Shown: positions 19,969 to 63,528 of the stretch, piece after piece | Layout of the letters: every line of letters starts with the position of its first letter | Position numbering within the stretch: the stretch's first letter is position 1 | DNA from: Alphaproteobacteria bacterium | GTDB taxonomy: Bacteria; Pseudomonadota; Alphaproteobacteria; Micavibrionales; Micavibrionaceae | Length of the DNA: 64,000 nucleotides | Assembly: GCA_016794145.1 (NCBI GenBank) | Contig: JAEUKP010000011.1 | Span: 62,001 to 126,000, forward strand | Direction of reading: 5' to 3' | Notes under the pieces: generated by a model | Database searches by the model: none | Seen by the model: only the letters and a program-made list of their open reading frames with translations | What the model was told of the DNA's origin: nothing | Program-made: the position numbers and the translations under genes

Positions 19969-22900
19969 ATGGTACGAATCCGCCCATTCTTTTCGTCTGT
20001 CATGACTGTTGCTTTATTATCATCGGCTGCATTTGCAGCAGATGATCCATCTTTATTCAAAGTAAAAATGCGTGGTAGCGATAAAGCGGGCTATTCTCGA
20101 ATAGTATTTGATTGGGGGGCTGCTACCAATCCGTCCCAAGTCAGATATAAAACAGAAGAATTATCAGACAGAGTTGTTATTCGGTTTGAAGGTAAGGTTG
20201 ATTTATCATCTGATTCGGATGTCTTCAAATCTTTGTCTCGTGTTACTGATTATAAAATCATTTCTTCGAATCAGGTTGAAATCGCCTTTACAAAAGGACA
20301 GACGGTTCGTTATTTACCAGCAGATAACAGGTTGATTATTGATATCAAGGGCGATCCTGTTCAGAAGCCTGCCTTCCCTTCTTCAGAGAAGCTATCGACA
20401 GAATCGCAGCCAGTTGATTTGGCCTCCCAAATCGAAACAGCTGCTGGTGATGGGGTTGATCAGAAACATGGATCCTCTGCCTTGCCGGCTGCCGCAGAAG
20501 GAGCTCCCGAATCTGTAGCAGTTCCCGCAAGTACAGGGTCTTATGATATTGTTATTACATCGACAACAGCGATTCCCCTTGCCGTTTTCGAACGGAATCG
20601 GTATCTGTGGATTGTTCAGGGGAAAGAAAATATCAAGTTGCCACCTCAGCTGATTAGCCATGGTGGTCAGGCATTGCAAGGATTTGAACCGATTCCATCA
20701 TCTACGGGTGTATCTGTTTTTAGGATCCAGATTCCAGAGAATATGAACATATCTGCAACAGGTGGCGGATTGGTTTGGAAATTGCGATTACAGACTGAAG
20801 CAACATCCAAATCTGATTCACAATCCTTCATTCCGTATCAAAAAACATCTGACATTCATAACGTGACTGTAAAACCCGGTATTCGTTGGCCTGCATCTGG
20901 CGTTAGCCGGGTCGTTGAAATAAAGGATCCAGATGCAGAAGATACAATAACAGTTGGATTGGTTGACACAGCAAAAGATTTTACAGGTGGACTTCAAAGT
21001 TTTGTTGATTTTGAAAGTCTTCCTGCTTTTGTTGGTTTGGCAGTATTACCAAAAATTGATGACCTGAAAGTTACAAAGACAGATGAGGGAATAGTCCTTA
21101 GCCGAGAAAAGGGATTAAATCTGGCATCTGATCAAGATATGATGACAGCCGGAGAGAAACCAAAGCCCGAGCATCATGAAACAAAGCATGAATCTGCTGC
21201 GGATACCTCTAAAGATCTTTCGCAGATCTATGATTTTAAATCTTGGCAAGTTGGAGATAAGAAAAGCCTTTCAAACAATCAACGCTTAATTATGGCGGCG
21301 ATGGGGAATCAGACAAATGAAAAAAAAGCAGAAGGATTAATTGGTCTTGCCAAACTATCTTTGTCTTTTAATTATGCACCAGAGGCTATTGGGTATCTGG
21401 ATTTGGCAGAAGAATATGTTCCCGAGATAGAATCTAATCCTGAATTTATGGCTTTGATGGGCGCAGCAGAGGCGTTGTCATGGAAGCAGAAAGACGCATA
21501 CCAGATCTTTTCCCATGCCAGTTTGAATGATATTGCAGACATCCCTTATTGGAAGGCTTTTACACTGGCAAAGCTTGATGATTGGCAGCAGGCCGCCAGA
21601 ATTCTTCCGAATGACCATCATATTATTGCTGGATATTCGGATGATATTAAAACCCCGTTAGGACTCACATTGGTTGAAATTGCTTTACGTGAAGGAAATT
21701 TACCAAAAGCGAAGAGTTTTCTTGATGTGCTCGAGCCGTTGCGAGATCATATGGATCTTCCTTATGCCTCTGCCTATGATTATTTAAAGGGAGAGATGGA
21801 CCGGCAGGGCAAAAAACCCGAAGAGGCAAAGGCAGCATGGAAAGGCCTTTCCGATGCTGCGGATGATTTGTATAGGGCAAAGGCGCGGTTTGCTTTAACA
21901 ATGATGCAATTAGATGCGAAGGAAATTACAGAGGACAAAGCGATCGATAATCTTGAGGGGCTTCGTTATGCTTGGCGCGGCGATGATCTTGAGGTGTCGA
22001 TCAATTATAATCTTGCCAAGATATATCTGATGAAAAATGAGCCTGTAAAAGCGCTTACGATGATGCAGTTGGCATATTCTTTAAATCCATCATCAGAGCA
22101 GGGTAAGAAAATCAATGCAGATATGCATGAGGCTTTTAAAGCACTTTTCTTACCGGAGAAAATAAAAACAATTTCTCCCGTCGATATTCTTATTCTTTAC
22201 AATGAATTTGCAAATTTATTACCGCCAGGAGATGAGGGGGCTGCGATCACCCGGCAATTGGCAGAACGTATGGCGACGGCAGATTTATTACCCCGTGCGA
22301 TTGCACTGCTTAAAAAACAGGTTGATGATGGTTTAAAAGGGTTGGAGGGGGCATCTGTTGCCATTCGCTTGGCAACACTTCAGAACATGGATATGAAACC
22401 TGATGATGCTTTGGTATCACTGGATAAGGCAGAAAATTTTATGAAGGGGCTTCCATCTGATGTGGACCAGGATGTTCTTGCCAAACAGGAGGATATTGGT
22501 CTTTTGCGGGCAAAAGCCTATTCTTTGAAAGGGAAACCTGATGAGGCTTTTGCTGCACTTGCTTTACTTCCACAAGATGATCAATCTTTAAAGTTAAGGG
22601 CAGATATTGCCTGGCGTGCTAAAAAATGGCAGGACGCAGCCGATTCTTTAGAACAATTGATTCAAAATCAAAACATCACACTCACACGGCCATTAACGGA
22701 TCCACAGGCTGAATTATTGTTGAATTGGGCCGTTGCTTTGTATCTTGCAGATAATCGATATGTGCTTGCAAATGTCAGGGAAAGATATTCCGATGCCATG
22801 TCTGCGACCCCTAAGGCGCAGAAATTCGAAGTTGTAACGCGGCCGCGTCAATCTGCATTATTGGCTGATAGAGAGACAATTAATTCTATTATTGATGAAG

Positions 22901-23082
22901 CAAGCATTTTTAAAGACTTTCTGACCAGTTTCAGGACGGCAGACACGCCTGAAAAACCGGTTGTGGTTCCAGCTTCTCCGAATGACGAAGCTTCTTCACT
23001 TTCCTCTTCAGCGGGCGAAAATGTACCACAGGCTTTAAGAAATTTGCCAGGATTAAAGACAGATGAAGTCTTGGGTGATTAA
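19969..23082 (+). CDS. Large periplasmic TPR-repeat protein
   Basis: A 1037-aa exported protein. Residues 1-24 are a signal peptide with probable cleavage after SAAFA. Residues about 27-120 form a beta-rich domain reminiscent of AMIN-type wall-binding domains (SRIVFDWG, LSDRVVIRFEG, RLIIDIKG). A Ser/Ala/Pro-rich linker follows. From about 420 to 900 there are repeated helical pairs typical of tetratricopeptide repeats (for example ALTMMQLAYSLNPSSEQG and PDEAFAALALLPQDDQSLKL). The C-terminus is low-complexity. Likely an envelope scaffold; no enzyme motif was found. Confidence 0.75.
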   Translation: MVRIRPFFSSVMTVALLSSAAFAADDPSLFKVKMRGSDKAGYSRIVFDWGAATNPSQVRYKTEELSDRVVIRFEGKVDLSSDSDVFKSLSRVTDYKIISSNQVEIAFTKGQTVRYLPADNRLIIDIKGDPVQKPAFPSSEKLSTESQPVDLASQIETAAGDGVDQKHGSSALPAAAEGAPESVAVPASTGSYDIVITSTTAIPLAVFERNRYLWIVQGKENIKLPPQLISHGGQALQGFEPIPSSTGVSVFRIQIPENMNISATGGGLVWKLRLQTEATSKSDSQSFIPYQKTSDIHNVTVKPGIRWPASGVSRVVEIKDPDAEDTITVGLVDTAKDFTGGLQSFVDFESLPAFVGLAVLPKIDDLKVTKTDEGIVLSREKGLNLASDQDMMTAGEKPKPEHHETKHESAADTSKDLSQIYDFKSWQVGDKKSLSNNQRLIMAAMGNQTNEKKAEGLIGLAKLSLSFNYAPEAIGYLDLAEEYVPEIESNPEFMALMGAAEALSWKQKDAYQIFSHASLNDIADIPYWKAFTLAKLDDWQQAARILPNDHHIIAGYSDDIKTPLGLTLVEIALREGNLPKAKSFLDVLEPLRDHMDLPYASAYDYLKGEMDRQGKKPEEAKAAWKGLSDAADDLYRAKARFALTMMQLDAKEITEDKAIDNLEGLRYAWRGDDLEVSINYNLAKIYLMKNEPVKALTMMQLAYSLNPSSEQGKKINADMHEAFKALFLPEKIKTISPVDILILYNEFANLLPPGDEGAAITRQLAERMATADLLPRAIALLKKQVDDGLKGLEGASVAIRLATLQNMDMKPDDALVSLDKAENFMKGLPSDVDQDVLAKQEDIGLLRAKAYSLKGKPDEAFAALALLPQDDQSLKLRADIAWRAKKWQDAADSLEQLIQNQNITLTRPLTDPQAELLLNWAVALYLADNRYVLANVRERYSDAMSATPKAQKFEVVTRPRQSALLADRETINSIIDEASIFKDFLTSFRTADTPEKPVVVPASPNDEASSLSSSAGENVPQALRNLPGLKTDEVLGD

Positions 23083-38147: not shown

Positions 38148-38876
38148 ATGTCCGAATCGACACCGCCAAGCGTTCAAAATCAAAAATCGACACGACCTGG
38201 AGGGCCGCCCCCCAGAAAGACTGGTGCCAAGCCATCACCTGATCAAGCTGAAATTCAAATGTTGAAAACAGTGGGGTCTGTTGTTGTCCGGAATGAGTTT
38301 TATCGTGATGGATATCGTACTCTCCTGAGGATTGCAGTTATTGAAGCGATGATCATCTTGGCGCTTGTTGGGGCGATGTATTTTGTGATTGAGGTGCACC
38401 AGCCTGAAAATCGGTATTTTGCAACAACGGAGGATGGACGTTTGGTTCCTATGGTTCCTTTGAGTGAGCCGAATTTGAGTGTTCCCGCGCTAATGTCCTG
38501 GAGTGCGCAGGCGGCAACAGAGGTGATGACTTTTGGTTTTAATGACTATAAGCGTCGTTTGCAGCAGGCATCACGAAACTTTACACGCCTTGGCTGGGTG
38601 AGCTTTACGGCCGCTCTTGAAAAATCACGTATTATAGAAACCGTTGAGGCGAATGGTCAGGTTGTCTCTGCGGCGCCTGCAAGTGCGCCTATTCTGATTT
38701 CAGAGGGGCTTGTGAATGGTCGGTATCAATGGCAGGTTCAGGTTCCTTTGGTGGTGACCTATCAGGCGGGTTCGTCTATTCGGGATGATAAGATGCTGGT
38801 GACGTTGCTTCTTGTCCGGGTTCCAAAACTTGAAAGCCCGAATGGTGTCGGGATTGAGCAATGGATTGCGCGTTAG
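38148..38876 (+). CDS. dotI: Type IVB secretion protein DotI/IcmL
   Basis: Inner-membrane protein of the Dot/Icm (TraM of IncI plasmids) apparatus. The 242-aa protein has a Pro-rich cytoplasmic N-terminus, a membrane helix near residues 59-84 and a periplasmic domain with NRYFATTEDGRLVPMVPL, LSVPALMSWSAQAATEVM, FNDYKRRLQQASRNFT and GWVSFTAALE, which are diagnostic. First gene in a run matching icmL-K-E-G-C-D-J-B. Followed after 115 bases by dotH. Confidence 0.92.
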   Translation: MSESTPPSVQNQKSTRPGGPPPRKTGAKPSPDQAEIQMLKTVGSVVVRNEFYRDGYRTLLRIAVIEAMIILALVGAMYFVIEVHQPENRYFATTEDGRLVPMVPLSEPNLSVPALMSWSAQAATEVMTFGFNDYKRRLQQASRNFTRLGWVSFTAALEKSRIIETVEANGQVVSAAPASAPILISEGLVNGRYQWQVQVPLVVTYQAGSSIRDDKMLVTLLLVRVPKLESPNGVGIEQWIAR

Positions 38877-38991
38877 AAAAACAGCAAAATAATTCTATAA
38901 TAACGATTTATCATTGTTATATTGATATTGCTCTTGTCCGGGTTCCGGTATATTCTTCTCCTGATTTTTAAGTAAACCGCACGGGGTGTGC

Positions 38992-40188
38992 ATGACGAAA
39001 TTTTATTTTTTCCGCATTCAGATGGTCATATTGATGGTCGTCCTTGTTTGTGTGGGCGGCACTTCGCAGGCCCAGACACCTTCTGTATCCGAGACTCCTA
39101 CGGAAACACCGACTCAAACCCTTATGCAAGAGGCTCCGGCTGCAGCCGATCCTCAACCGGATTCGAAAGCATCGGCCCCTGAGGCCGACGCTCCGCCGAG
39201 TTTGGCTGATTATTTGAGTAAAACAGCTGGCACCAATGATTCGGGGGAATCAAGTTCCTCTGCCCCCTCTAATCCGGCGGCGACTCCTTCTGGGGCGGCG
39301 CCAACAATGGACATGAACGCGCTTGTTCAGGGCGGGGCTCCTCCTTTGGAGGTGTCTCCCGAAGTTGCCAAAGCTGAGGCTGACGCGTCTATTCGAAAAG
39401 AAGCTTTTGGAATTGCTTCTGATCAGTTGATGCCCTTAAAGCCAAACGAAATTCGAAGAATGCTCGAGCTTTACGATGAAACGAAGCAAGCATCTGAAAC
39501 CCCGGTTTATCCAACGCCTGAACCGGAATCCTCATTTCAGGGGATCTCTTTGGATCCTGGATCAAAGCCCTTGGTCATTAAAACCGCGATTGGCAATGTG
39601 ACAACGGTTAGTATTGTTGATTTAACAGGGCAGCCATGGCCAATTCAAGACCTGACATGGGCCGGTGATTTTCAGATAGAACAGCCGGAAAGTGGAAGTC
39701 ATATGTTGAGGATTACCCCAACTTCCGAGTTTGCAGGCGGAAATGTATCCATGAGGCTTTTGGGTTTAAATCCACCCGTTATCTTTACATTGAAGGCGGA
39801 GCGGAAAACGGTTCATGTTCGGTTGGATGTCCAGATTCCGGAAATCGGACCGAAGGGTGTTCTTCCTCCAATGGAGGTTCCTGTATCTACAAAGGCCGGT
39901 GACGATTTTATGACATCTGTTTTGGTTGGCGTTGTCAAAGGCAAGGATACGACGCAATTGAAAGTAGATGGGATTGATGGTCGTACAACAGCTTTTAGCA
40001 AGGGTGGCATGCTTTATGTCCGGACCCCTTATACAATGTTGTCCCCCGCCTGGAGTAGTTCGGTGCAATCTGGTGATGGGACCAAGGTGTACGCGTTAAA
40101 TTTTAGCCCTGTTATCCTTTTGTCTGATAAAGGAAAAATGGTGAGAGCTTACCTCTCTCATAAGGAGACGTCTGATGAGCAATACTGA
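38992..40188 (+). CDS. dotH: Type IVB secretion protein DotH/IcmK
   Basis: Outer-membrane core component (TraN-like). The 398-aa product from the ATG at 38992 (GGGG just upstream) has a signal peptide cleaved near SQA. A disordered Pro/Ala/Ser region spans about 25-150. The conserved C-terminal part includes KPLVIKTAIGNVTTVSIVD, TGQPWPI and a beta-rich end VRTPYTMLSPAW. In Legionella DotC, DotD and DotH form the outer ring; DotC and DotD are not in this window. It overlaps dotG by 14 bases. Confidence 0.9.
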   Translation: MTKFYFFRIQMVILMVVLVCVGGTSQAQTPSVSETPTETPTQTLMQEAPAAADPQPDSKASAPEADAPPSLADYLSKTAGTNDSGESSSSAPSNPAATPSGAAPTMDMNALVQGGAPPLEVSPEVAKAEADASIRKEAFGIASDQLMPLKPNEIRRMLELYDETKQASETPVYPTPEPESSFQGISLDPGSKPLVIKTAIGNVTTVSIVDLTGQPWPIQDLTWAGDFQIEQPESGSHMLRITPTSEFAGGNVSMRLLGLNPPVIFTLKAERKTVHVRLDVQIPEIGPKGVLPPMEVPVSTKAGDDFMTSVLVGVVKGKDTTQLKVDGIDGRTTAFSKGGMLYVRTPYTMLSPAWSSSVQSGDGTKVYALNFSPVILLSDKGKMVRAYLSHKETSDEQY

Positions 40189-41671
40189 TAATTTTGATCC
40201 GCCTGAGGATATGGATCTTGATCCCCCTTCTGATGCCGATATCGATTTTGATGATTTTGAAAATAATAAGGATAAGTCTTTAGGGGCCTCGTGGAAAAGT
40301 AGCCCTCTCTTCAAGTTTGGGGTTGTCGCGCTTGTTATTATTATCGTTGTTGCATTGGTTTCTATTCTGAGCAGCGATGAGGTGCAAGCCCCTCAATCTG
40401 TTGTGGGAAAAGGCGCTGGTGCGGGGTTTAAAGAGGCTCCTGGTATGAAAGAGCTGACCCCTGTTATGAAGGAAGCGATTGAAGAAAGAAATGATCAGCG
40501 TGTTGATGAGGCTGAGAAAAAAGGCATAAGTGCTATTCCGACGCCGATCACCCCCCCAAAAACTCTTTTAGAGGTCCCTCAGGATTCAGGCGAGTCAGAG
40601 GATCCTTTGCTGAGATGGCAACAAATGCAGAATGAGCGTGCAAAAGCGCAGCGGGAACAACAGTTGGTTGAGGGGCAAAAACCTCAAACTGACCCGCAGA
40701 GGGAAGCAAAAGTTGGCGCTTTGGTGCAGGCTATGTCCCAGCAAATCGAAGGGATTCTAGGTGAACAGAAGGATCAAGAATTAAAGCATATGAATGTTTT
40801 TACGCCTGCATCTCTCCCCGAGGGTGGGGCTGTGGATCCAAATGGTCTTGGATCCCCTGTCACGGGTCAACCCCAACTTGCCGCGCAGAAACCATCTAAA
40901 ATCCTTTTGCCGGCGGGTAAGATTGAATATGCCCAGATGGTTCTAGAGGCGAATTCTGATATTCCGGGGCCTGTTGTGGCTTTATTGGCATCGGGTCAAT
41001 TCAGTGGGGCTAAGTTAATTGGAAAGTTCCAGGCTCAGGAAGAGTATCTTGTGATTACTTTCTCAACTTTGGTTACAAAAAAAGGGACAAGTATTCCTAT
41101 TAATGCGTATGCCCTGGACCCTGGAACATCCCTGACCGGGATGGCGACAGATGTAGACCATCGCTACTTTAAACGGATTGTTTTACCTGCAGCTGCAAAA
41201 TTTGTTGAAGGTTTGGGCGAGGCCTATGCTGAAACAACTTCCGAGACAACGCAGAACTCAACGACGACAACGACAACCACAACAGATTTGAACACGAAGC
41301 AAGAATTCGGGAAAGCTGTCAGCGAGGCCGCCAAATCTGTTGGTGATGTTCTGGACGAAGATGGTAAAAACACCAAGCCATTGGTTATTGTTGCCGCTGG
41401 GACTCCCATGGGTATTTTGTTTATGGAGTCTGTGACGGATAAAGACGTTTTGCAAGCAAGGGCAGGTGTGTCCGGAAGCGGGCAGCAAGGAGGCCAACAG
41501 GTTTCTCCGCAATTGCCGTATCCTCAGGGGTTTCAACCGCAGCAAAATACGGGCGTTACATCCATGCAACAGCTGCAATATGGTCTTCAAGGGCAGCAAT
41601 TTATGCAGCAAAGTCCGTATAACGCAAATACGATATTGGGCCCATACGGTGGCACAAGTCAGCAACAATAG
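40175..41671 (+). CDS. dotG: Type IVB secretion protein DotG/IcmE
   Basis: Channel protein spanning the envelope, with a VirB10/TrbI-like C-terminal domain. The 498-aa product has one helix near residues 46-65 (FGVVALVIIIVVALVSIL) and the conserved ILLPAGKIEYAQMVLEANSD, GPVVALLASGQFSGAKLIGKF and INAYALDPGT segments. It is about half the length of Legionella DotG (about 1050 aa) and lacks that protein's long internal repeat region. AAGGAG precedes the ATG. The C-terminus is Gln/Pro-rich. Confidence 0.92.
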   Translation: MSNTDNFDPPEDMDLDPPSDADIDFDDFENNKDKSLGASWKSSPLFKFGVVALVIIIVVALVSILSSDEVQAPQSVVGKGAGAGFKEAPGMKELTPVMKEAIEERNDQRVDEAEKKGISAIPTPITPPKTLLEVPQDSGESEDPLLRWQQMQNERAKAQREQQLVEGQKPQTDPQREAKVGALVQAMSQQIEGILGEQKDQELKHMNVFTPASLPEGGAVDPNGLGSPVTGQPQLAAQKPSKILLPAGKIEYAQMVLEANSDIPGPVVALLASGQFSGAKLIGKFQAQEEYLVITFSTLVTKKGTSIPINAYALDPGTSLTGMATDVDHRYFKRIVLPAAAKFVEGLGEAYAETTSETTQNSTTTTTTTTDLNTKQEFGKAVSEAAKSVGDVLDEDGKNTKPLVIVAAGTPMGILFMESVTDKDVLQARAGVSGSGQQGGQQVSPQLPYPQGFQPQQNTGVTSMQQLQYGLQGQQFMQQSPYNANTILGPYGGTSQQQ

Positions 41672-41702
41672 AAGTTCTTGGCAGATATAATAGAAGGTAA
41701 TT

Positions 41703-43070
41703 ATGGCAGATAAAAATGTGATTGATGATCAGGATTTTGATACTCAAGGCGTTGACGCGCAAGATTCGTCGTATGATGAATCCTACGATGATGATCAGGT
41801 TTATGCAGATGATGATTCATCTGAATGGGCTGATGAGTCTGACTTCTCTGAGGAAGATAGTTCTAAAGAGGAGAATCAACCCTCTCAGAAGAAGAAAACA
41901 TCTCCTTTAACCATCATTATTATTTTAGTCGTTGCGATTGTTGGTGTTTTTGGGGTTATGCTTTTGAAAGGCAATAAATCTTCTGTCACCTCCTCAGAAC
42001 AGGGCAGTGAAGTCGCTCTCTCGACAGATGTTGAGGCGCCGCTTGATGCGGAAAGTCCATCGGGATCATCGCCCGTAGTGTCAATGGATCAAGGCTTGCC
42101 CACACACGAAAATGCCCCAAATCCTGATAAAAATACTGTTTCTGGAGAGGTACAGTCTCCGGAATCTATCGGAACTGACGGGCTTAAGGCAGCTCCATCT
42201 CTTGTTTCTGGGGAAGGGGAATCTGGGCAGGGTGTTATGGAGAACCCAAGCTTGTTGGTGCCAAATACAAACGTTCGTTCTCCTGAGTCTGCGCGAGGAG
42301 ATGATCCTGTTGCCCAGCCGTCTTCAGACCGGTCTGCAGATGTTGTAAAGGCAATTTCTCCAACGGTGACTCCTGTGTCGGATTTCCCAACGGTTGATTC
42401 GATTAAGAAACCTGATATAGCTCAATCTGGTGCTGTCGAAGCGTCGACCTCCAAAGATTCGGGTATTGACCCTGGTTCCCCTTCTGATTCCTCTGTTTCG
42501 ATGTCTTCTGGACCTACTCCTGTGCTCCCAGTTCCAACTTCTGCGGCGCAGCAAACAGCCACTGTCGATTTGAAGGCTCAACTTGAAGAGGCCCGCTCCA
42601 AAATTCAGGTGCTCGAGAAGCAGTTGTCTGAACAATCTGCTGAGTTAGAGATCCAAAAAAAGAAAAATATCTCAAATAATGAGGCATCATCACGCGTAAC
42701 ATCTGCTAAACAGGCGGATGGATCTTCTGCCGAGCGGTCTCTTCCAGAGGGAAGCCCTGTGGAAACGCCTGTAGAAACAAAGTCGGTTGTTCCTGAGCGG
42801 AATCACTTTGAATCCCGTTCTATCGTGCCCCCTCGAACCCTTGTAAAGAAACCGGTCCAAGTTTCCCAACCTAAACCCCTCCAAAAGAAACGCAGCTGGA
42901 TTTTAAAAAGTGCAGGGGCAGGTAAGGCCATTCTTTCAGATAAAGCGACTGGTGATTTGAAAACTGTTAGGATCGGTGACTCTGTCCCAGGCCTTGGTCG
43001 TATTATAAGTATCTCTATGGACCATTCTTCATGGGTTGTTAAGGGAACCTCAGGATTCGTAAGAGAATAG
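41703..43070 (+). CDS. dotF: DotF/IcmG-position protein
   Basis: A 455-aa protein at the icmG slot of the cluster. The acidic N-terminus (about 60 residues, Asp/Glu/Ser-rich) precedes a membrane helix near 66-87. A Ser/Pro-rich stalk and a coiled coil (about 284-320, LKAQLEEARSKIQVLEKQL) follow. The end (about 395-455) is a small beta domain with RSWILKSAGAGKAIL and VRIGDSVPGLGRIISI, of the kind seen in TraP/PilP-like proteins. Legionella IcmG has the same helix plus coiled-coil plan but is 269 aa. Assignment rests on order and plan more than on sequence. Confidence 0.65.
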   Translation: MADKNVIDDQDFDTQGVDAQDSSYDESYDDDQVYADDDSSEWADESDFSEEDSSKEENQPSQKKKTSPLTIIIILVVAIVGVFGVMLLKGNKSSVTSSEQGSEVALSTDVEAPLDAESPSGSSPVVSMDQGLPTHENAPNPDKNTVSGEVQSPESIGTDGLKAAPSLVSGEGESGQGVMENPSLLVPNTNVRSPESARGDDPVAQPSSDRSADVVKAISPTVTPVSDFPTVDSIKKPDIAQSGAVEASTSKDSGIDPGSPSDSSVSMSSGPTPVLPVPTSAAQQTATVDLKAQLEEARSKIQVLEKQLSEQSAELEIQKKKNISNNEASSRVTSAKQADGSSAERSLPEGSPVETPVETKSVVPERNHFESRSIVPPRTLVKKPVQVSQPKPLQKKRSWILKSAGAGKAILSDKATGDLKTVRIGDSVPGLGRIISISMDHSSWVVKGTSGFVRE

Positions 43071-43251
43071 CAGCTTTTTTCCAGTTCACTCTTTATCTAT
43101 TTAACCCTTCTTTAATCTGGGAATGTTATTTTCAGATATGTGCATTTTTGGCCTTTATTTAGGTTTTGGAAGATTTACGAAGCTTGATTTCTCGGCAAAA
43201 ATCTGATCTAATTAAGGTAAGGAATGCCGTAAAAACGGTCGGGTGTGATGT

Positions 43252-44295
43252 ATGAGAAATTTAAAAGTTTCCCTTTATAGGTTGCCGTTATCATTGTTTG
43301 CAACAATGATTGTTCTTCTTTCTTCTGTTAAGCCTTCCTATGCTGGTGCAAGTGCTATTGATGTCTTGGTTCAAATGGGGGTTTCCAAGGTCAATTCCTG
43401 GATTAATAAGGCGCTTAACTCTCTTTTGGGCCTTGGGGCTTGTAAAGGCAATGGTCAGATTAGTGATGTTATTTGTAACGTCATGGAGTCTTCTGCCGGT
43501 ATTCCCGGTTTTATTAGTGCTCTTGCTTATATTCTTGGGTTGATTTTGGCTGTATCTGCTCTTTTCAAGCTAAAAGAGCATGTTCTTAACCCGTCTCAAA
43601 CACCTTTATCTGACTCTGTTAAGAGGTTTGTTGCCGGTGGTGCCTTTTTTGCGCTCCCTATGGTGACAGAAGCAAGCCAGAATTTGCTGACAAAAGGCAA
43701 TATGGCCATGAGCAAAGTTACGCTTTACAATGGCTCTACTGGTGGTGGAAGCGGGCTTGACGGCATGTTGGTCGCCCTTTTTCTTGATATTTATGAACCC
43801 TTGATGAGTATTATCTTTGCGTTTGGGTACTTAGCTGGGTTGGTTCTTACGATGGTTGGAATTGGCCGCTTGATTAAAACTGCGCAAGATGGTCCACGGG
43901 GCCCTGCCAGCATGGGAACGGTCATGACCTTTATTATTGCGGGTGTCCTTTTTTCCCTGAGCAATATTATGGGCGCTTTCTCGAGCAGTATGTTCCAGAG
44001 CTCGACAGTTGCGACATTTGCTGTGCTAGAGACATCAACCGGGGATGTGGCGCTTGATGGTCATGTTTTGGCCATGATTTCGACGATTCTTGTTTTTATG
44101 ACTATAATAGGTTATATTAGTTTTATGCGCGGGTTTTTTATTATCAAAGATGTCGCAGAGGGAAGTGGTCAGGCGTCTCTTATGGCTGGTGTTACCCATA
44201 TTTTCGGGGGTGCGTTGGCTGTGAATCTCGGGCCGCTGTTAAATGCCGTCCAGACAACTTTGGGACTAAATTCTTTTGGTATAACATTTTACTAA
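43252..44295 (+). CDS. dotE: DotE/IcmC-like protein with an IcmD-like first half
   Basis: A 347-aa polytopic protein at the icmC slot. Signal-like helix at the start, then a region (about 80-140, GIPGFISALAYILGLILAVSALFKLKEHV) closely resembling the IcmD protein encoded next (GIPGFITAIAYIMGTLFAVLGILKIKDHV). The second half has four further helices with GLVLTMVGIGRLIKTAQDG and HIFGGALAVNLGPLLNAVQT, as in IcmC. It is much longer than Legionella IcmC (194 aa). It may be a fused IcmD-like/IcmC protein. A 181-base gap precedes it, longer than elsewhere in the cluster. Confidence 0.75.
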   Translation: MRNLKVSLYRLPLSLFATMIVLLSSVKPSYAGASAIDVLVQMGVSKVNSWINKALNSLLGLGACKGNGQISDVICNVMESSAGIPGFISALAYILGLILAVSALFKLKEHVLNPSQTPLSDSVKRFVAGGAFFALPMVTEASQNLLTKGNMAMSKVTLYNGSTGGGSGLDGMLVALFLDIYEPLMSIIFAFGYLAGLVLTMVGIGRLIKTAQDGPRGPASMGTVMTFIIAGVLFSLSNIMGAFSSSMFQSSTVATFAVLETSTGDVALDGHVLAMISTILVFMTIIGYISFMRGFFIIKDVAEGSGQASLMAGVTHIFGGALAVNLGPLLNAVQTTLGLNSFGITFY

Positions 44296-44330
44296 CTACA
44301 CAAACGAAACTGGCATCGAGGAGGAAAATC

Positions 44331-44741
44331 ATGCTGAAACTAAGTAAAAAATTGAATAGACTTGGGGCTTACACATCTGCGTCACTTGTTATAGGGCTTT
44401 TGTCTTCGACCAGTGCGCATGCGCAAAGCGGTGGAAACTCTTTTACAAGTATTACAAAGACAATTACCGAACAGATTGGTGGAATTCCAGGTTTTATTAC
44501 GGCAATCGCCTACATCATGGGAACCTTGTTTGCCGTCCTTGGTATTTTGAAAATCAAAGACCATGTTGAAAACCCAAGTAACGAACCTTTGAAGAACGGG
44601 GCTATCCGTTTAGCTGTTGGTGGTGGATTGTTTGTGATTCCGTTGATTACAGAGGCGATGCAAAACCTTATTGGTACAAATGGTACGGGTGTTGACGTTC
44701 AAAAAATGAACAATATTAATACCTATAACGCTGTTAACTAA
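44331..44741 (+). CDS. dotP: Type IVB secretion protein DotP/IcmD
   Basis: A small membrane protein of 136 aa, close to Legionella IcmD (132 aa). A signal-type N-terminus (cleavage near AHA) is followed by two hydrophobic segments with GIPGFITAIAYIMGTLFAVLGI and LAVGGGLFVIPLITEAMQN. GAGGAGG lies before the ATG. The first segment repeats in dotE. Precise function in the apparatus is unclear, but icmD is required for Legionella intracellular growth. Confidence 0.85.
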   Translation: MLKLSKKLNRLGAYTSASLVIGLLSSTSAHAQSGGNSFTSITKTITEQIGGIPGFITAIAYIMGTLFAVLGILKIKDHVENPSNEPLKNGAIRLAVGGGLFVIPLITEAMQNLIGTNGTGVDVQKMNNINTYNAVN

Positions 44742-44761
44742 GAATTATAAATTATCATACT

Positions 44762-45478
44762 ATGAAAGATATCAAACTAAATTTGGGGATTGCCCGTTCA
44801 ACGGGCAGTCTTCGTTCTTCTTCGGGGGCAGGTAGACCGCCTTATGCACAAGGCCCTGCTATGCTGACTCCTGAACTGAAGTCTACAATTTTTCAAAGAG
44901 ATGAACAAACCTGTCAATGTTGTGGATTTAAGGCTGATAAATATCAGGATGTCGACTTTATCGATCATAATCCTAAAAATCTTGATCCGGAGAACTTGAT
45001 AACGTTGTGTATTTTTTGTCATCAATGTTTTAATCTGGAACAGGCAACAACGATGCGATCCGGTGTCTTGGTCTGGTTGCCTGAAATTTCGCAAGTTGAT
45101 TTGCATCATTTGATGCGTGCAGTTTATGTTGCGCGCATTTCCCAGGGGCCCATGGCCGAAGCCGCGCGTGTAACACTTGATACCCTGATGGGGCGTCGTG
45201 AGGAGGTCCGCCGTCGTCTTCGGACTGATGATCCTTTTGTCCTTTCTGTTGTTTTAAAAGATTTTCTGACAGGAAAATATTATGCTGAAAGAAATGAAAA
45301 ATTAGAGGGAGTCCGTTTGTTACCATTGGACAGACGTTTGATTAAAGAGGCTGATTTGGAGTTTAACCAGTTTCCTCAGATTCTTGCTTATTGGAGATCA
45401 AAAGATGGTCCATTTGGGGACCGTGCCCCGACACTTTGGATGAATTTGTATAAAAATGCTTTAAGGCAATTAAACTGA
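44762..45478 (+). CDS. dotN: Type IVB secretion protein DotN/IcmJ
   Basis: A 238-aa zinc protein, slightly longer than Legionella IcmJ (208 aa). The first 35 residues are disordered. CQCCGFKADKYQDVDFIDH and LCIFCHQC provide two CxxC-type knuckles, giving an HNH-like fold that in IcmJ/DotN is thought structural. DotN belongs to the DotL coupling complex, although dotL and dotM are not nearby. Located exactly between icmD and icmB. Confidence 0.85.
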   Translation: MKDIKLNLGIARSTGSLRSSSGAGRPPYAQGPAMLTPELKSTIFQRDEQTCQCCGFKADKYQDVDFIDHNPKNLDPENLITLCIFCHQCFNLEQATTMRSGVLVWLPEISQVDLHHLMRAVYVARISQGPMAEAARVTLDTLMGRREEVRRRLRTDDPFVLSVVLKDFLTGKYYAERNEKLEGVRLLPLDRRLIKEADLEFNQFPQILAYWRSKDGPFGDRAPTLWMNLYKNALRQLN

Positions 45479-45578
45479 TATTTTCTTTCTTTTTTCGTTA
45501 ATTTCTGGTGGTAGGCGGTTTTCTATTTCTAGAAATCCTGTATAGTATCAAAAGATTAAATCCAACTGATTGATACAC

Positions 45579-48566
45579 ATGAATATTCTTCAAAAAATTC
45601 TTTACCCGTTTCAAAGTGCTTTACGCCAATCTATCAGTAGTTTCATTCGGTTGGAAACGATGGACAGTGAGTTTACGCTGGCTGCAAGCGATGGGTCTCT
45701 TGTCACCTATTTGAAAGTTGATGGCAGCCGACAGATCATAGGTGAGGAAGAGTATAATTTTCTGGTTGAGGCTGCAACAATCAAGCTGGGCGCAAAGTTT
45801 GACCGACCAGGGCATGCGATGCAAATTTATTTTTCAAGGGATCCGGCCCGGATTCGGTCGTATCTTGATGTTTTGAACAGGCCCGTTTTTGCGACTGCAC
45901 AGAATACGGGACTTGAGATCTCTGATTTGATTGAAGAAAAGGTCAAGAATCTCTCAACGATTCTCAGTTATGAAGAGTGCTATTTTGTGCTCTGGACACG
46001 TCCCTCGTCCATGACCAAAAGTGAAATCGAGCGTGTTCGTGAAGAAAAACAGGTCCAGAATAAGAAATGGGTTAACGCCCCTTATGGTCAAAATCCTTTG
46101 GCGGGGATTGAGTCTCTTCGTACAAGACATAAAAGCTATACAACAGCTATTCAACAGGCATTGGATGAGATGGGCATTCGGGCTCAATTTCTTGAAGTTC
46201 ATGATGCTTTGCGGGCTGTACGTAATAATATGTTCCCCTCCCGGGCAAATGAGGATTGGCGGGCCTGTTTGCCCGGTGACCCGATTTCCCCCCGTTCCCC
46301 GCTTAATCAGTTTGATTTGTCTGATATTATCTGGCCATCGATTCCCGACCAGATTTCGGTTGGTGACGCGCGGTTGACCGGTGGGTCTGTTGTCCAGATT
46401 GATGATATGAATTGGGCTGGTGCCGATATGACATTGGGGCCGATGGAAGTTGCGCCTTTTCCGATGCTTTTAAACAGGCTTTACGATTCAAAAGTGCCCT
46501 TCAGGATTTCATTGTTGATTGAGGGCGGGGGGGTTGAGGCAACGGCCTTCAAAACATTGGTTGCAACGTTGATGAGCGTAACCAATGCGATGAATAAGCA
46601 AATCAAATATTCTTTGGAAGGATTACAAGCCCTTGCCCGCAGCGAGCCTGTTGTGAAACTGCGGGTTTCTTTTGCAACATGGGCTCCTAAATCTGATCCA
46701 AATTTAATTCAAGACAGGTTATCTGTTTTGATGCAGTCTGTTGAAAGTTGGGGATATGCTCAAGTCAGTGCAGCATCTGGTGACCCCCTCGATTGTGTTA
46801 TGTCATCCGCGATGGGCATTCACTGTGCAGGCACTGCTCCGCTTGCGATTGCGCCAATGCGTGAGGTTATGAAACTGGTCCCATGGCAACGGCCATCAAG
46901 TCCGTTTTCTCAAGGCGCTATTATGTTACGAACGCCTGATGGGAAAGTTTGGCCTTACCAGACAGGTACAAATTTAACAACCACATGGTTTGATCTTATT
47001 TTTGCGCAACCAGGGGCTGGTAAATCTGTTTTGATGAATACGTTGAATCTTGGTACAATTCTAACGCCGGGTTTAAATAAACTTCCCTTTATTGCAATTA
47101 TTGATATTGGTCCCTCTTCCTCTGGGTTGGTCTCGCTGATTAAAGAGGCCCTGCCAGTTGAGCGACAATACGAATCAAATTATTACCGTCTGCAAATGTC
47201 CAGGAATTATGCGATCAACCCTTTTGACACGCAATTGGGCTGTCGTTATCCGCTGATTGATGAACGAAGCTATCTTACTGAATTAATGACGTTGCTTTGT
47301 ACCCCTCCGGGCAATGAAAAGCCATATGATGGTATTCCCCAATTGGCGAGTTTGGTTGTCGACGAAATGTATCGTTGGCGCGACGACAACATGGCGAATG
47401 CAGAACCGCGCCCATATCTCCCACGTCTTGATTCAGATATCGATGATGCTATCCAGAAACATGGTATTCATCTTCCGACAGATCCTTATTGGTGGGATGT
47501 TGTTGAAAGTTTATTCGAACGTGGATTGTATATAGATGCGATTCGGGCGCAGCGGCACGCAATGCCAACCTTGAATGATGCTATTACAGCTGCACGGCGA
47601 CCACAAATTCGCTCTTTGCTTGAGGAAACAGCGATCGGAGGCAGTACAGAATCAGTTATCTCTGCTTTTGAACGGATGATTACATCTGCTGTTCGTGACT
47701 TTCCGATTTTATCATCTGTCACACAATTTGATATTGCAGGGGCACGTATTTGCTCTTTGGATTTGATGGACATTTCTCCTCAAGGGGATGATACGGCAGA
47801 TCGTCAAACTGCTGTCATGTATATGCTGGCACGGCAGGCGTTGGTAAGGGCATGGTGGGTTGGTAAAGAGTCATTACCATTTATTCCCGAAAAATTCCGG
47901 GGTTATCATGAATTGAACCTTCAGGATATTGCAGAGTCACCCAAAAGACTTTGTTACGATGAATTTCATAGGACAAGCTCTTCATCTTCTGTACGTGCGC
48001 AAGTTGTACGTGACGTTCGGGAGGGGCGGAAACGTGGTGTTCAGATTGTTCTTGCATCTCAGCTCTTGGGTGATTTTGATGATGATATGGTTGATTTGGC
48101 CACGGGGGTTTGGGTTTTGGGGACGGCGGTTTCTGATAAGGCTGTTGATGATATCCGCGATAGGTTTGGCCTCTCTCCAACCGCAAGAAATATTATCAGG
48201 TATCGTTTAACAGGTCCCCGTGCAGGAGGCGCGCCTGCTTTGTTGATTTTAGGAACAAATGAAGGTCGTTACGAGCAGCATTTGATCAATACACTAGGTC
48301 CGATTGAACTTTGGGCTTTTGCAACCTCTGTTGAGGATGTGATTATCCGCAATAGACTGTATACGAAGTTTGGTGCCGGCCGTGCACGACAAATTTTAGC
48401 CACGTCTTTCCCCGGAGGAAGCGCGCGAAATGAATTGAAAAGACGTATTCTTGCAAAATCAGACTCAGGAGATACAAAAGCCGCAGCGCAGAGTGCCATT
48501 ATTGATGAATTGATTGAAGAATTAAGTGAAACATACCGTAAACAAGCTTTAGCAGGAAACGTTTAG
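45579..48566 (+). CDS. dotO: Type IVB secretion ATPase DotO/IcmB
   Basis: VirB4/TraU-like ATPase that powers the Dot/Icm channel at the inner membrane. About 995 aa, near Legionella IcmB (1009 aa). Walker A QPGAGKSVLM near residue 480, Walker B in LCYDEFHRT near 792, and IVLASQLLGDF (sensor-like) near 830. An ATG at 45579 is preferred; an in-frame TTG at 45570 is possible. No clear ribosome site in front. Last recognised gene of the icmL-to-icmB run. Confidence 0.93.
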   Translation: MNILQKILYPFQSALRQSISSFIRLETMDSEFTLAASDGSLVTYLKVDGSRQIIGEEEYNFLVEAATIKLGAKFDRPGHAMQIYFSRDPARIRSYLDVLNRPVFATAQNTGLEISDLIEEKVKNLSTILSYEECYFVLWTRPSSMTKSEIERVREEKQVQNKKWVNAPYGQNPLAGIESLRTRHKSYTTAIQQALDEMGIRAQFLEVHDALRAVRNNMFPSRANEDWRACLPGDPISPRSPLNQFDLSDIIWPSIPDQISVGDARLTGGSVVQIDDMNWAGADMTLGPMEVAPFPMLLNRLYDSKVPFRISLLIEGGGVEATAFKTLVATLMSVTNAMNKQIKYSLEGLQALARSEPVVKLRVSFATWAPKSDPNLIQDRLSVLMQSVESWGYAQVSAASGDPLDCVMSSAMGIHCAGTAPLAIAPMREVMKLVPWQRPSSPFSQGAIMLRTPDGKVWPYQTGTNLTTTWFDLIFAQPGAGKSVLMNTLNLGTILTPGLNKLPFIAIIDIGPSSSGLVSLIKEALPVERQYESNYYRLQMSRNYAINPFDTQLGCRYPLIDERSYLTELMTLLCTPPGNEKPYDGIPQLASLVVDEMYRWRDDNMANAEPRPYLPRLDSDIDDAIQKHGIHLPTDPYWWDVVESLFERGLYIDAIRAQRHAMPTLNDAITAARRPQIRSLLEETAIGGSTESVISAFERMITSAVRDFPILSSVTQFDIAGARICSLDLMDISPQGDDTADRQTAVMYMLARQALVRAWWVGKESLPFIPEKFRGYHELNLQDIAESPKRLCYDEFHRTSSSSSVRAQVVRDVREGRKRGVQIVLASQLLGDFDDDMVDLATGVWVLGTAVSDKAVDDIRDRFGLSPTARNIIRYRLTGPRAGGAPALLILGTNEGRYEQHLINTLGPIELWAFATSVEDVIIRNRLYTKFGAGRARQILATSFPGGSARNELKRRILAKSDSGDTKAAAQSAIIDELIEELSETYRKQALAGNV

Positions 48567-48572
48567 GAACTC

Positions 48573-49076
48573 ATGGCGAAGCCAAAAGACCCAGAACAGC
48601 AGACAGAAGAGAAATCGGGAATATCAGCCAGTAGAACAAAAAAAATATATTGGGTGGGGGGCGGTCTTTTCTGTTTTCTTATCATGATAATGATTATGGT
48701 ATCTGGTCAGGGAAGCATGCAGTATGGAATCTGTCGGGTCTATGTTGAGTTGCACGAGCTTTATCCTAGGGAAATTACATATTTGAGCGTTGATGATGGA
48801 AATCCCGTCAAAATTTTTTACAAAAAAATTGATCCCTTCGGCGTTGACTCTGTGAATTCGATTGAATGCCAATTCAAGAAGGATAGTAACGGCCAGTTGT
48901 TATACGAGTTGTCGAAGGTTGATATTAACGAGAGATTCAGGACATATGAGGCCGAGAAACCTGAGAATATCAAACGATTTAACGTCGGGATTCCCGCTAT
49001 TCTTGATAATCCTCCGAATCTTGATTTGCCAAATTTTTCACAAGACAATATTCTTGAATATAAAGATTCCGACTAG
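48573..49076 (+). CDS. Small single-pass membrane protein after icmB
   Basis: A 167-aa protein with a Lys/Glu-rich cytoplasmic N-terminus, one helix near residues 27-46 (WVGGGLFCFLIMIMIMVSG), and a polar, probably periplasmic domain with two Cys (YGICRVY, IECQFK) that may bond. It begins 6 bases after icmB, so it belongs to the operon. The Legionella icmB neighbour is icmF, a much larger protein, and this is not it. Unrecognised; a secretion-accessory role is inferred from position. Confidence 0.65.
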   Translation: MAKPKDPEQQTEEKSGISASRTKKIYWVGGGLFCFLIMIMIMVSGQGSMQYGICRVYVELHELYPREITYLSVDDGNPVKIFYKKIDPFGVDSVNSIECQFKKDSNGQLLYELSKVDINERFRTYEAEKPENIKRFNVGIPAILDNPPNLDLPNFSQDNILEYKDSD

Positions 49077-61785: not shown

Positions 61786-63528
61786 ATGTCTTTGTTGCAG
61801 TTTTCTCTTTCTTTTAACCAATTGAAAAAAAACAGTTTTTTTCTTTTAGTTCTTTTGTCAACAACAGGAATCTTATTGACAGGATGTGTGGATACTGTTT
61901 CCCCTGATCCAAGGACCCCTAATGTACCAACCCCAAAGGTTGCAGACCAAAGAGAACGAGCAATTAATGAAAACGCAGAAAGCATTATGTATCTCCCATT
62001 AGGGGATGATGTTTTAATTCCACAAAGTGTAAAGTCAGATGGATTGCCTGATACAGTTGTTGGCCCCTATGAGCTTCGTGGCGAAACGCTTGCTGGGGCG
62101 CTTCAGTTGATTTTAGACGGGGTGGATATTCCTGTTGCGTTTGAATCCGACACAAGTTTAACAAAAACAATTACGGTTACAAATTTAAAGGGGCCCATTA
62201 GCCAGGTCGTAAATGATGTGTGTGCTTTGGCGAATATGTATTGTTCTTATAATGGACATGTTTTGTCTGTAAAAGATCGCGAGATTTTTACGGTCACACT
62301 TCCTCCGATCGTTGCAAAGGCAGATATCGGTGCGTTATTAACAAATGTTGCGGCGGCGATTGGAAGTATTACCGGAGAGACCCCGATCACAGACCCATCT
62401 ACGCGTACCATTGTTTATCGTGCAAGCCAAAGAACTGCAGAAATGGCAAATCGCTATTTCCAAAGGCTTCGCTCGAATACGGCGATGATTGTATATGAAA
62501 CATATATTTGGGAAGTTAATCTGAATACAGCTAATTCTACAGGGATCAAGTGGTCCTCTTTTGACCAGATAGGTCGTTTTAAATTCGGATTGAATTTTGC
62601 TGGATCAACAGATTCAAATCTTGGGACACCTGTTAGTATAGGGTTGCCAACCACTGGAAATGTCAGCTTCACGTCTGGTGATGTCCTTCAGTTTATCTCT
62701 AGTTATGGGGCTGTTAAAACCATCTCACAACCGCAGATTTCTGTCTTGTCTGGGTCTGAGGCAAAGCTTCGTGTTGCAGATAAGCAGAACTATGTCGCAT
62801 CTGTTACAAAAACAGCGAGTACAACAACAGGGGGATCTGATAGTTTTTCAACGACTACAGCAACTGCGGACACCGGGTTTACGCTGAATATAGGGTCAAA
62901 TTGGGATAACTCTTCGGTTTATGGAACGATCGGGATTCTTCTGCAAGAACTTCGTAAGATTGACACCTTCGAGGCTGGGCCAGATGCAACTGTACAATTG
63001 CCCCAGACAACAGAGCGTGAATTAAACACGACTGTTCGTATCCGCCCTGGAGATATGGTTTTGATTGCTGGGTTGGTTCGTGAGAGTGATCAATTTACAA
63101 AGGATGGATTGGGGCTTTCGAATCCTTTGATTCCAACGAGTCGCAGTGTGAGTAGTGGGAATACCGAATTGGTTTTCTTATTGCATCCGCGAGTTATTGT
63201 TTTCACGGCGGCTGATGCAAGAACACCTCGTAATGGTGATACAGCAAGTGTTTCTTCTCCTGCTTCTAAAACTTTATCAAAGTCAGATCGGGATTCTTCT
63301 CCGTCTATTCCCTCACCCGTTCTTTCACCGGTGGTTTCGCCTTCGCGTGAGGCTGACATGGTTGCAAAAATGCCCGCTGTTATGGCTGATGAAACTGATG
63401 CCTTGTCACCGGTTTCATCATCGATAGAAATTCAGCCCCTCCCCGAGGTAACGACAGGTCATACAAATGCAGCTGACCTAGAAAAAGATCCATCTGTAAT
63501 TGTGAATTATGACGTTTTGGGACATTAG
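61786..63528 (+). CDS. Lipoprotein secretin, PilN/type IVb-like
   Basis: Outer-membrane channel of a type IVb pilus or related system. The 580-aa product has a lipobox at Cys34 (ILLTGC), an STN-like N-domain (residues about 90-160, LAGALQLILDGVDIPVAFES) and a C-terminal secretin domain: ISQPQISVLSGSEAKLRV, FTLNIGSNWDN, TVRIRPGDMVLIAGLVRES and GNTELVFLLHPRVIVF. The end (about 490-580) is a Ser/Pro-rich tail. Lipoprotein secretins occur in IncI pili (PilN) and BfpB. It ends 7 bases before the next gene. Confidence 0.88.
   Translation: MSLLQFSLSFNQLKKNSFFLLVLLSTTGILLTGCVDTVSPDPRTPNVPTPKVADQRERAINENAESIMYLPLGDDVLIPQSVKSDGLPDTVVGPYELRGETLAGALQLILDGVDIPVAFESDTSLTKTITVTNLKGPISQVVNDVCALANMYCSYNGHVLSVKDREIFTVTLPPIVAKADIGALLTNVAAAIGSITGETPITDPSTRTIVYRASQRTAEMANRYFQRLRSNTAMIVYETYIWEVNLNTANSTGIKWSSFDQIGRFKFGLNFAGSTDSNLGTPVSIGLPTTGNVSFTSGDVLQFISSYGAVKTISQPQISVLSGSEAKLRVADKQNYVASVTKTASTTTGGSDSFSTTTATADTGFTLNIGSNWDNSSVYGTIGILLQELRKIDTFEAGPDATVQLPQTTERELNTTVRIRPGDMVLIAGLVRESDQFTKDGLGLSNPLIPTSRSVSSGNTELVFLLHPRVIVFTAADARTPRNGDTASVSSPASKTLSKSDRDSSPSIPSPVLSPVVSPSREADMVAKMPAVMADETDALSPVSSSIEIQPLPEVTTGHTNAADLEKDPSVIVNYDVLGH

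What the first reader, a model, noticed from the sequence alone, without database searches (positions are those of the whole stretch)
38148..49076. Collinear Dot/Icm (type IVB) core cluster in an alphaproteobacterium
Eight genes in the order of Legionella icmL-K-E-G-C-D-J-B, with diagnostic motifs in DotI, DotH, DotG, IcmJ and IcmB, lie between gmk and secB. Dot/Icm systems are best known from Legionellales and IncI plasmids; the surrounding genes here are plainly alphaproteobacterial. The missing parts (DotA-D, DotL/M, IcmS/W, IcmF/H) would have to lie elsewhere. Such a system could deliver effectors to a host or prey cell.
Basis: partly seen in the sequence, partly recalled or inferred. Interest (0 to 1): 0.8.

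Follow-up and report, generated by a model that had tools for sequence, protein, structure and literature searches.

The report
Order-wide Dot/Icm secretion in Micavibrionales
A relative of the predatory bacterium Micavibrio, together with nearly its whole order, carries an intact Legionella-type protein-injection machine on its chromosome, and in one family the gene for the machine's central channel exists as three side-by-side versions, so these predators may inject proteins into the cells they attach to.

Summary
Window 38148-49076 encodes DotI, DotH, DotG, a DotF-like protein, an IcmD-IcmC fusion, DotP, DotN and DotO, plus a ninth conserved gene, between gmk and secB. No MOBP or MOBF relaxase was found, ATPase motifs are intact, and selection is purifying. 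The organism belongs to Micavibrionales, the order of the epibiotic predator Micavibrio. Among 38 order genomes, DotH occurs in 36, DotC in 35, DotL in 37 and DotA in 38. Gene trees follow the taxonomy. DotL and DotB score much higher against L. pneumophila than against conjugation homologues. Twenty genomes of the window's family read in full carry exactly three tandem dotA genes; eight read from other families carry one. DotA forms the pentameric channel in Legionella. A 2011 paper on M. aeruginosavorus reported no type III or IV secretion; a 2022 survey noted such systems in seven marine Micavibrionales. Best reading: contact-dependent protein injection, probably into prey; target and effectors are untested. 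Novelty: new variant of a known kind.

The parts
38148..38876 (+). dotI/icmL, inner-membrane component (VirB8-like)
   Evidence: PF11393 E=3e-63; NF038072 IcmL_DotI_only 197.6 bits, above its cut-off of 175
38986..40188 (+). dotH/icmK, outer-membrane core component
   Evidence: PF12293 E=1.3e-68; L. pneumophila DotH (PDB 6x62) E=2e-39
40175..41671 (+). dotG/icmE, VirB10-like core protein, short form of 498 aa; only the C-terminal part of the 1008-position DotG model is matched
   Evidence: NF033900 E=7.9e-48 (model positions 725-1007); TraO 5.3e-30; TrbI PF03743 3.8e-15
41703..43070 (+). dotF/icmG-like: one TM segment, acidic N-terminus, coiled coil; assigned by position and topology
   Evidence: weak IcmG hit E=0.063; conserved at this position in relatives with low identity
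43252..44295 (+). dotE/icmC-like protein with an extra N-terminal IcmD/DotP-like domain (natural fusion)
   Evidence: TraQ NF033883 E=3.2e-11 on residues 172-339; residues 63-160 match DotP, 40% identity, E=2e-24
44331..44741 (+). dotP/icmD, small pilin-like membrane protein
   Evidence: TrbC PF04956 E=0.00057 and DUF6750; conserved in order in relatives
44762..45478 (+). dotN/icmJ, coupling-complex component with HNH-type zinc fold
   Evidence: NF038221 E=1.1e-24; CxxC pairs at residues 51 and 83
45570..48566 (+). dotO/icmB, VirB4-class ATPase
   Evidence: P-loop AQPGAGKS at residue 479, nearly invariant in the order; TraU/DotO relatives on 3,768 plasmids; 139 confirmed related loci in public genomes
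48573..49076 (+). conserved gene of unknown family directly after dotO: one TM helix plus an alpha/beta domain (periplasmic side inferred) with two invariant cysteines (C54, C99); candidate new component
   Evidence: found in 70 loci against 76 with dotO; alignment A3; confident model, pLDDT 87.9, no significant fold match

Best explanation
This is the core operon of a complete, vertically inherited, relaxase-less type IVB secretion system that the order Micavibrionales keeps on its chromosome as a protein translocator. Shown: the genes, their order, intact ATPase motifs, order-wide conservation, purifying selection, closer similarity of the coupling protein DotL and of DotB to Legionella than to conjugation systems, and a triplicated dotA in one family. 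Inferred: DotL-DotM-DotN, with a new membrane protein encoded between dotM and dotL, load protein substrates. DotB and DotO open the base. DotA forms the central channel through the DotC-D-H-G(-F) envelope complex. After irreversible attachment to a neighbouring cell, effectors are injected, most likely into bacterial prey, since cultured Micavibrio are epibiotic predators. In the DotA-triplicated family the channel would be a hetero-oligomer or a set of alternative channels.
For: Component hits in the window and elsewhere in the genome: DotC E=3.7e-75, DotD, DotB and IcmT, DotA x3, DotL and DotM. Order-wide presence: DotH 36/38, DotA 38/38, DotL 37/38, DotC 35/38. Collinearity. Gene trees follow family and genus. 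No MOBP or MOBF relaxase in this genome; 30 of 38 order genomes lack MOBP and 37 of 38 lack MOBF. DotL against L. pneumophila DotL 499 bits, against true conjugation coupling proteins 219-305; DotB 367 against 158-244. dN/dS about 0.02-0.14 where dS is not saturated. Precedents: P. putida IsoF kills bacteria with a T4BSS (PMC9519443); DotA-IcmX is the pentameric gatekeeper channel in Legionella (PMC12857230, PMC12981334). Micavibrio feeds attached to prey (PMC3189940).
Against: No effector or immunity gene was identified. IcmS/IcmW adaptors, IcmF/DotU and IcmX were not found or not searched genome-wide. The window organism is an uncultured lineage, so predation is inferred from the order. The strain M. 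aeruginosavorus ARL-13 was described as lacking T4SS (PMC3189940) and could not be re-searched here. DotL also matches NCBIfam TrbC (388 bits, below cut-off), and a T4CP of a Bosea megaplasmid scores 454 bits, so DotL similarity alone does not prove protein transport.
Confidence: 0.6

Rival explanations
1. The same intact protein translocator, but aimed at eukaryotic cells (protists, algae), as in Legionella and Coxiella. Uncultured Micavibrionales would be protist associates rather than, or as well as, predators of bacteria.
For: The closest experimentally studied coupling protein and DotB are those of L. pneumophila. Relaxase-less T4BSSs are typical of eukaryote-associated Gammaproteobacteria (PMC11338181; PMC9418006). 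Several alphaproteobacterial lineages with small genomes carry similar clusters.
Against: No eukaryote-associated lifestyle is documented for the order in the papers read; the only well-studied members are predators of bacteria (PMC3189940). The IcmSW-binding DotL C-terminus of Legionella is not matched: similarity stops at residue 655.
Confidence: 0.22
2. A conjugation apparatus or remnant of an I-type (MPF_I) plasmid or ICE that moves or moved DNA.
For: Related systems are common on alphaproteobacterial plasmids. A few relatives hold MOBP relaxases.
Against: No MOBP or MOBF relaxase in this genome. Genes dispersed at four loci among housekeeping genes, with G+C close to the flanks. Single-copy core order-wide with congruent trees. 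Purifying selection. DotL and DotB are much closer to Legionella than to plasmid homologues.
Confidence: 0.06
3. A T4BSS used for something other than injection, such as adhesion, DNA release or secretion into the medium, with the DotA copies secreted as matrix proteins.
For: L. pneumophila DotA is itself secreted (PMC12981334). Micavibrio must attach irreversibly (PMC3189940).
Against: The full coupling complex DotL-M-N and all three ATPases are kept under purifying selection, which points to substrate loading and transport.
Confidence: 0.12

Closest known systems
Legionella pneumophila / Coxiella burnetii Dot/Icm (T4BSS, pT4SSi)
   Same: Gene order dotI-H-G-F-E-P-N-O; DotA, B, C, D, L, M and IcmT present; no relaxase found; DotL 499 bits and DotB 367 bits to L. 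pneumophila.
   Different: DotG is 498 aa and matches only the C-terminal part of the DotG model; IcmD-IcmC fusion; most DotC proteins lack a lipobox (4 of 21 have one); the IcmSW-binding DotL tail is not matched; IcmS/W, IcmF/DotU and IcmX not found; three dotA genes; extra genes after dotO and between dotM and dotL; four separate loci.
Pseudomonas putida IsoF kib T4BSS (bacterial killing; PMC9519443)
   Same: A chromosomal T4BSS in a bacterium that acts on other bacteria; works-like precedent.
   Different: kib is a rare genomic island with 17 T4BSS structural genes and an effector-immunity pair; here the system is core to an order, dispersed, with no effector pair recognised. Sequences of kib were not compared.
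I-type conjugation systems (IncI1 R64/P9-type, IncL/M, alphaproteobacterial MPF_I plasmids)
   Same: Homologous gene set and order (traM-N-O-P-Q-R-T-U, traY, trbA/C).
   Different: Those carry relaxases and mobilise plasmids; no MOBP or MOBF relaxase here; coupling protein and DotB far more Legionella-like.
pT4SSi noted in seven marine Micavibrionales (Needham et al. 2022, PMC9418006)
   Same: Same class of system in the same order, detected by MacSyFinder.
   Different: One sentence with no parts list; order-wide core status, dotA triplication and new accessory genes are not described in the passages read.

Membership tests
Type IVB secretion system (Dot/Icm) | Core-complex genes DotC, DotD, DotH, DotG | tested here: met
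   PF16932, PF16816, PF12293, NF033900; DotF-like protein by position only
Type IVB secretion system (Dot/Icm) | Three ATPases DotB, DotO, DotL with intact Walker A | tested here: met
   TIGR02524 397 bits; P-loops at DotO 479, DotB 167, DotL 126
Type IVB secretion system (Dot/Icm) | DotA channel protein and DotI/IcmT inner-membrane proteins | tested here: met
   TIGR04346 over cut-off three times; NF038072 over cut-off; NF038220 over cut-off
Type IVB secretion system (Dot/Icm) | Coupling complex DotL-DotM-DotN | tested here: met
Legionella-type Dot/Icm in the strict sense | IcmS/IcmW adaptors and a DotL C-terminal tail that binds them | tested here: inconclusive
   DotL similarity stops at residue 655 and tail length varies widely in the order; IcmS/IcmW not searched genome-wide
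Legionella-type Dot/Icm in the strict sense | IcmF and DotU/IcmH, IcmX, DotK, IcmQ/R | not tested
Legionella-type Dot/Icm in the strict sense | Translocates protein effectors into another cell | not testable with these tools
   needs experiment
I-type conjugation (MPF_I) | Cognate relaxase | tested here: not met
   no PF03432 or PF08751 match in this genome; other relaxase classes not tested
I-type conjugation (MPF_I) | Location on a plasmid or mobile island | tested here: not met
   four loci among housekeeping genes on 131-178 kb contigs; gmk and secB flank the window cluster; core to the order

The most novel reading that the evidence does not exclude
Micavibrionales use an ancestral chromosomal T4BSS as their prey-injection weapon, and one family has evolved a hetero-oligomeric (or switchable) translocation channel from three tandem DotA paralogues, plus coupling-complex and envelope parts unknown in Legionella: a PH-like membrane protein encoded between dotM and dotL, and the two-cysteine membrane protein encoded after dotO.
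Probability: 0.4. Interest if true: 0.85.

Novelty: new variant of a known kind. Interest (0 to 1): 0.68.

Why it matters
[quoted passage not shown] An order-wide Dot/Icm machine gives a concrete, testable injector. A channel protein triplicated in one whole family, while eight genomes read from other families have a single copy, offers a natural experiment on the DotA pore, which is pentameric in Legionella. It also suggests that relaxase-less T4BSSs arose or spread in Alphaproteobacteria as an ancient chromosomal trait, not only in Legionella-like Gammaproteobacteria.

Tried and rejected
Coupling-protein search with TIGR02759 (F-type TraD) found nothing; PF12696 found DotL. DotO has no relative among solved structures. 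The genome family f205 first thought to be Legionellaceae proved to carry IncI-like clusters and was used only as a plasmid-type reference. Fold search of the dotM-dotL linker protein gave only weak PH/PTB-like matches (best E 0.12), and of the post-dotO protein nothing usable. Genes next to the dotA array (a TcpQ-like 155-aa protein and a 309-aa membrane protein) and the proline/glutamate-rich gene before dotD are not conserved in the order, so they are not counted as parts. M. aeruginosavorus ARL-13 and EPB could not be searched: neither is named among the 80 best loci, which used exact peptide patterns and gives no proof of absence.

Full report
Observation. The nine open reading frames at window 38148-49076 are co-directional and close together. 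Profile searches identify DotI, DotH, DotG, a TraQ/DotE-like protein and DotN clearly; DotP and DotF are weak by profile but keep their place in relatives. DotO has no Pfam or NCBIfam model of its own, yet it matches TraU/DotO proteins of 3,768 plasmids, 3,699 of them over at least 80% of its length. The protein at 43252-44295 has an N-terminal region that is 40% identical to DotP, so it is an IcmD-IcmC fusion. A ninth gene (48573-49076) follows dotO in 70 loci, against 76 loci in which dotO was found.

The rest of the machine. The window is part of contig C3 of a 1,887,449-base genome scored 100% complete. On C2, dotD, dotC, dotB and icmT are consecutive, followed by a gene with STN and TcpQ domains. 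On C1, dotM, a 179-aa membrane protein and dotL are consecutive. DotL matches L. pneumophila DotL (PDB 6sz9) at E=1.6e-148 and DotM matches IcmP at 1.5e-30. On C3, upstream of the window, three dotA genes of 1042, 946 and 1002 codons stand in tandem; the third matches the solved L. pneumophila DotA at E=2.9e-18. P-loops are intact in DotO, DotB and DotL, DotN keeps its CxxC pairs, and DotD has a lipobox in 21 of 21 sequences, whereas only 4 of 21 DotC sequences show one.

Who carries it. A DotO profile search of named public genomes gives 139 confirmed loci; many of the 80 kept are titled Micavibrio sp., including a closed 2.46-Mb record labelled M. aeruginosavorus. This places the window in the order Micavibrionales. 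In 38 genomes of the order, DotH is present in 36, DotA in all, DotL in 37 and DotC in 35, and DotA, DotC and DotL are present in all 31 near-complete genomes. In a sample of the class, 16 of 385 genomes have DotH: four from the window's own family and 12 from other families, so the trait is patchy but not confined to the order. Two of those other lineages (L162, L164) carry dotI to dotL in one contiguous cluster, including the small gene between dotM and dotL, which suggests that the four-locus layout of Micavibrionales is derived (inference).

Inheritance and constraint. DotL and DotO trees group all Micavibrionales sampled with strong support and recover genus and family. The DotB tree agrees broadly, but its deep branches are unsure. 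Comparison with the nearest relative gives dN/dS of about 0.02 to 0.14 where dS is not saturated; dS is high everywhere, so these are rough. G+C of the cluster (45.5%) is close to its flanks (43-44%). These facts argue against a recent island and against decay.

Protein translocator or conjugation. No MOBP or MOBF relaxase was found in the genome; 8 of 38 order genomes have a MOBP hit and one has MOBF. Other relaxase classes were not searched. By bit score the coupling protein and DotB are much closer to Legionella (499 and 367) than to conjugative plasmids (219-305 and 158-244). The exception is a T4CP on a Bosea megaplasmid (454), which lies near a DotO-like gene without other recognisable core genes in the stretch read. 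The DotO tree puts most of the alphaproteobacterial chromosomal systems in one starred group with Micavibrionales, and the IncI plasmids far away. No Legionella DotO sequence was available for that tree.

DotA triplication. All 25 genomes of the window's family gave several DotA matches. The 20 read in full carry exactly three tandem genes, while eight genomes read from families f2, f3, f5, f6 and f7 have one. The tree sets the triplicated genes off from the single ones with strong support and shows that first, second and third copies are mostly orthologous by position (six label changes against a least possible three). The paralogues are only about 28-37% identical to each other in aligned parts, so they diverged long ago and are all kept. 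In Legionella DotA with IcmX forms a pentameric gatekeeper channel (PMC12857230 and PMC12981334). The economical reading is a mixed channel or three alternative channels; which one is not decidable here.

Candidate new parts. The 179-aa protein between dotM and dotL is conserved through the order and in two other lineages. It has a predicted PH-like N-terminal domain, one membrane helix and a conserved C-terminal motif GxPxSADDFL; the fold match is weak. The protein after dotO has one membrane helix and an alpha/beta domain with two invariant cysteines, with no significant fold match.

Function. [quoted passage not shown] P. putida IsoF shows that a T4BSS can kill bacteria (PMC9519443). The predatory cyanobacterium Vampirovibrio was proposed to use a conjugative T4SS on its algal prey (PMC4451040). 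Injection into bacterial prey is therefore the most likely role; injection into protists is the main rival. No effector was identified.

Prior knowledge and novelty. Needham et al. 2022 listed pT4SSi in seven marine Micavibrionales in one sentence (PMC9418006). In the papers searched I found no description of order-wide conservation, of the complete parts list or of the DotA triplication; subscription journals and preprints are mostly outside that library. I therefore class it as a new variant of a known kind.

Noticed in passing
L012:4454-13520 (genome C3:24454-33520): Three tandem, diverged dotA paralogues, conserved in all 20 genomes of the family read in full; single copy in eight genomes of other families.
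   Followed up: yes
L009:17789-18328 (minus strand, genome C1): 179-aa protein between dotM and dotL: PH-like domain predicted, one TM helix, conserved C-terminal motif GxPxSADDFL; also present in two other alphaproteobacterial lineages (L162, L164).
   Followed up: partly
L162, L164, L165, L166, L168: Other alphaproteobacterial lineages, mostly small genomes, with chromosomal T4BSS clusters; in L162 and L164 the run from dotI to dotL is one contiguous locus.
   Followed up: partly
L179, L190, L191: DotO homologues (41-43% identity) on Methylorubrum, Rhizobium and Bosea megaplasmids without recognisable dotI/H/G neighbours in the 33 kb read; in Bosea a DotL-like protein lies nearby.
   Followed up: partly
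L003:96-1343 (genome C2): STN plus TcpQ domain protein follows dotB-icmT and is found there in most relatives; possible outer-membrane accessory of the system.
   Followed up: partly
window 61786-63528: Secretin (PF00263, E=3e-15) of a type II, type III or pilus system near the window end.
   Followed up: no
window 19969-23082: 1037-aa protein without any Pfam match at E 0.0001.
   Followed up: no
L217:2096-7723: In genome G020 two dotA genes show up as one 1876-residue open frame but as separate start-to-stop genes; possible fusion or read-through not examined.
   Followed up: no
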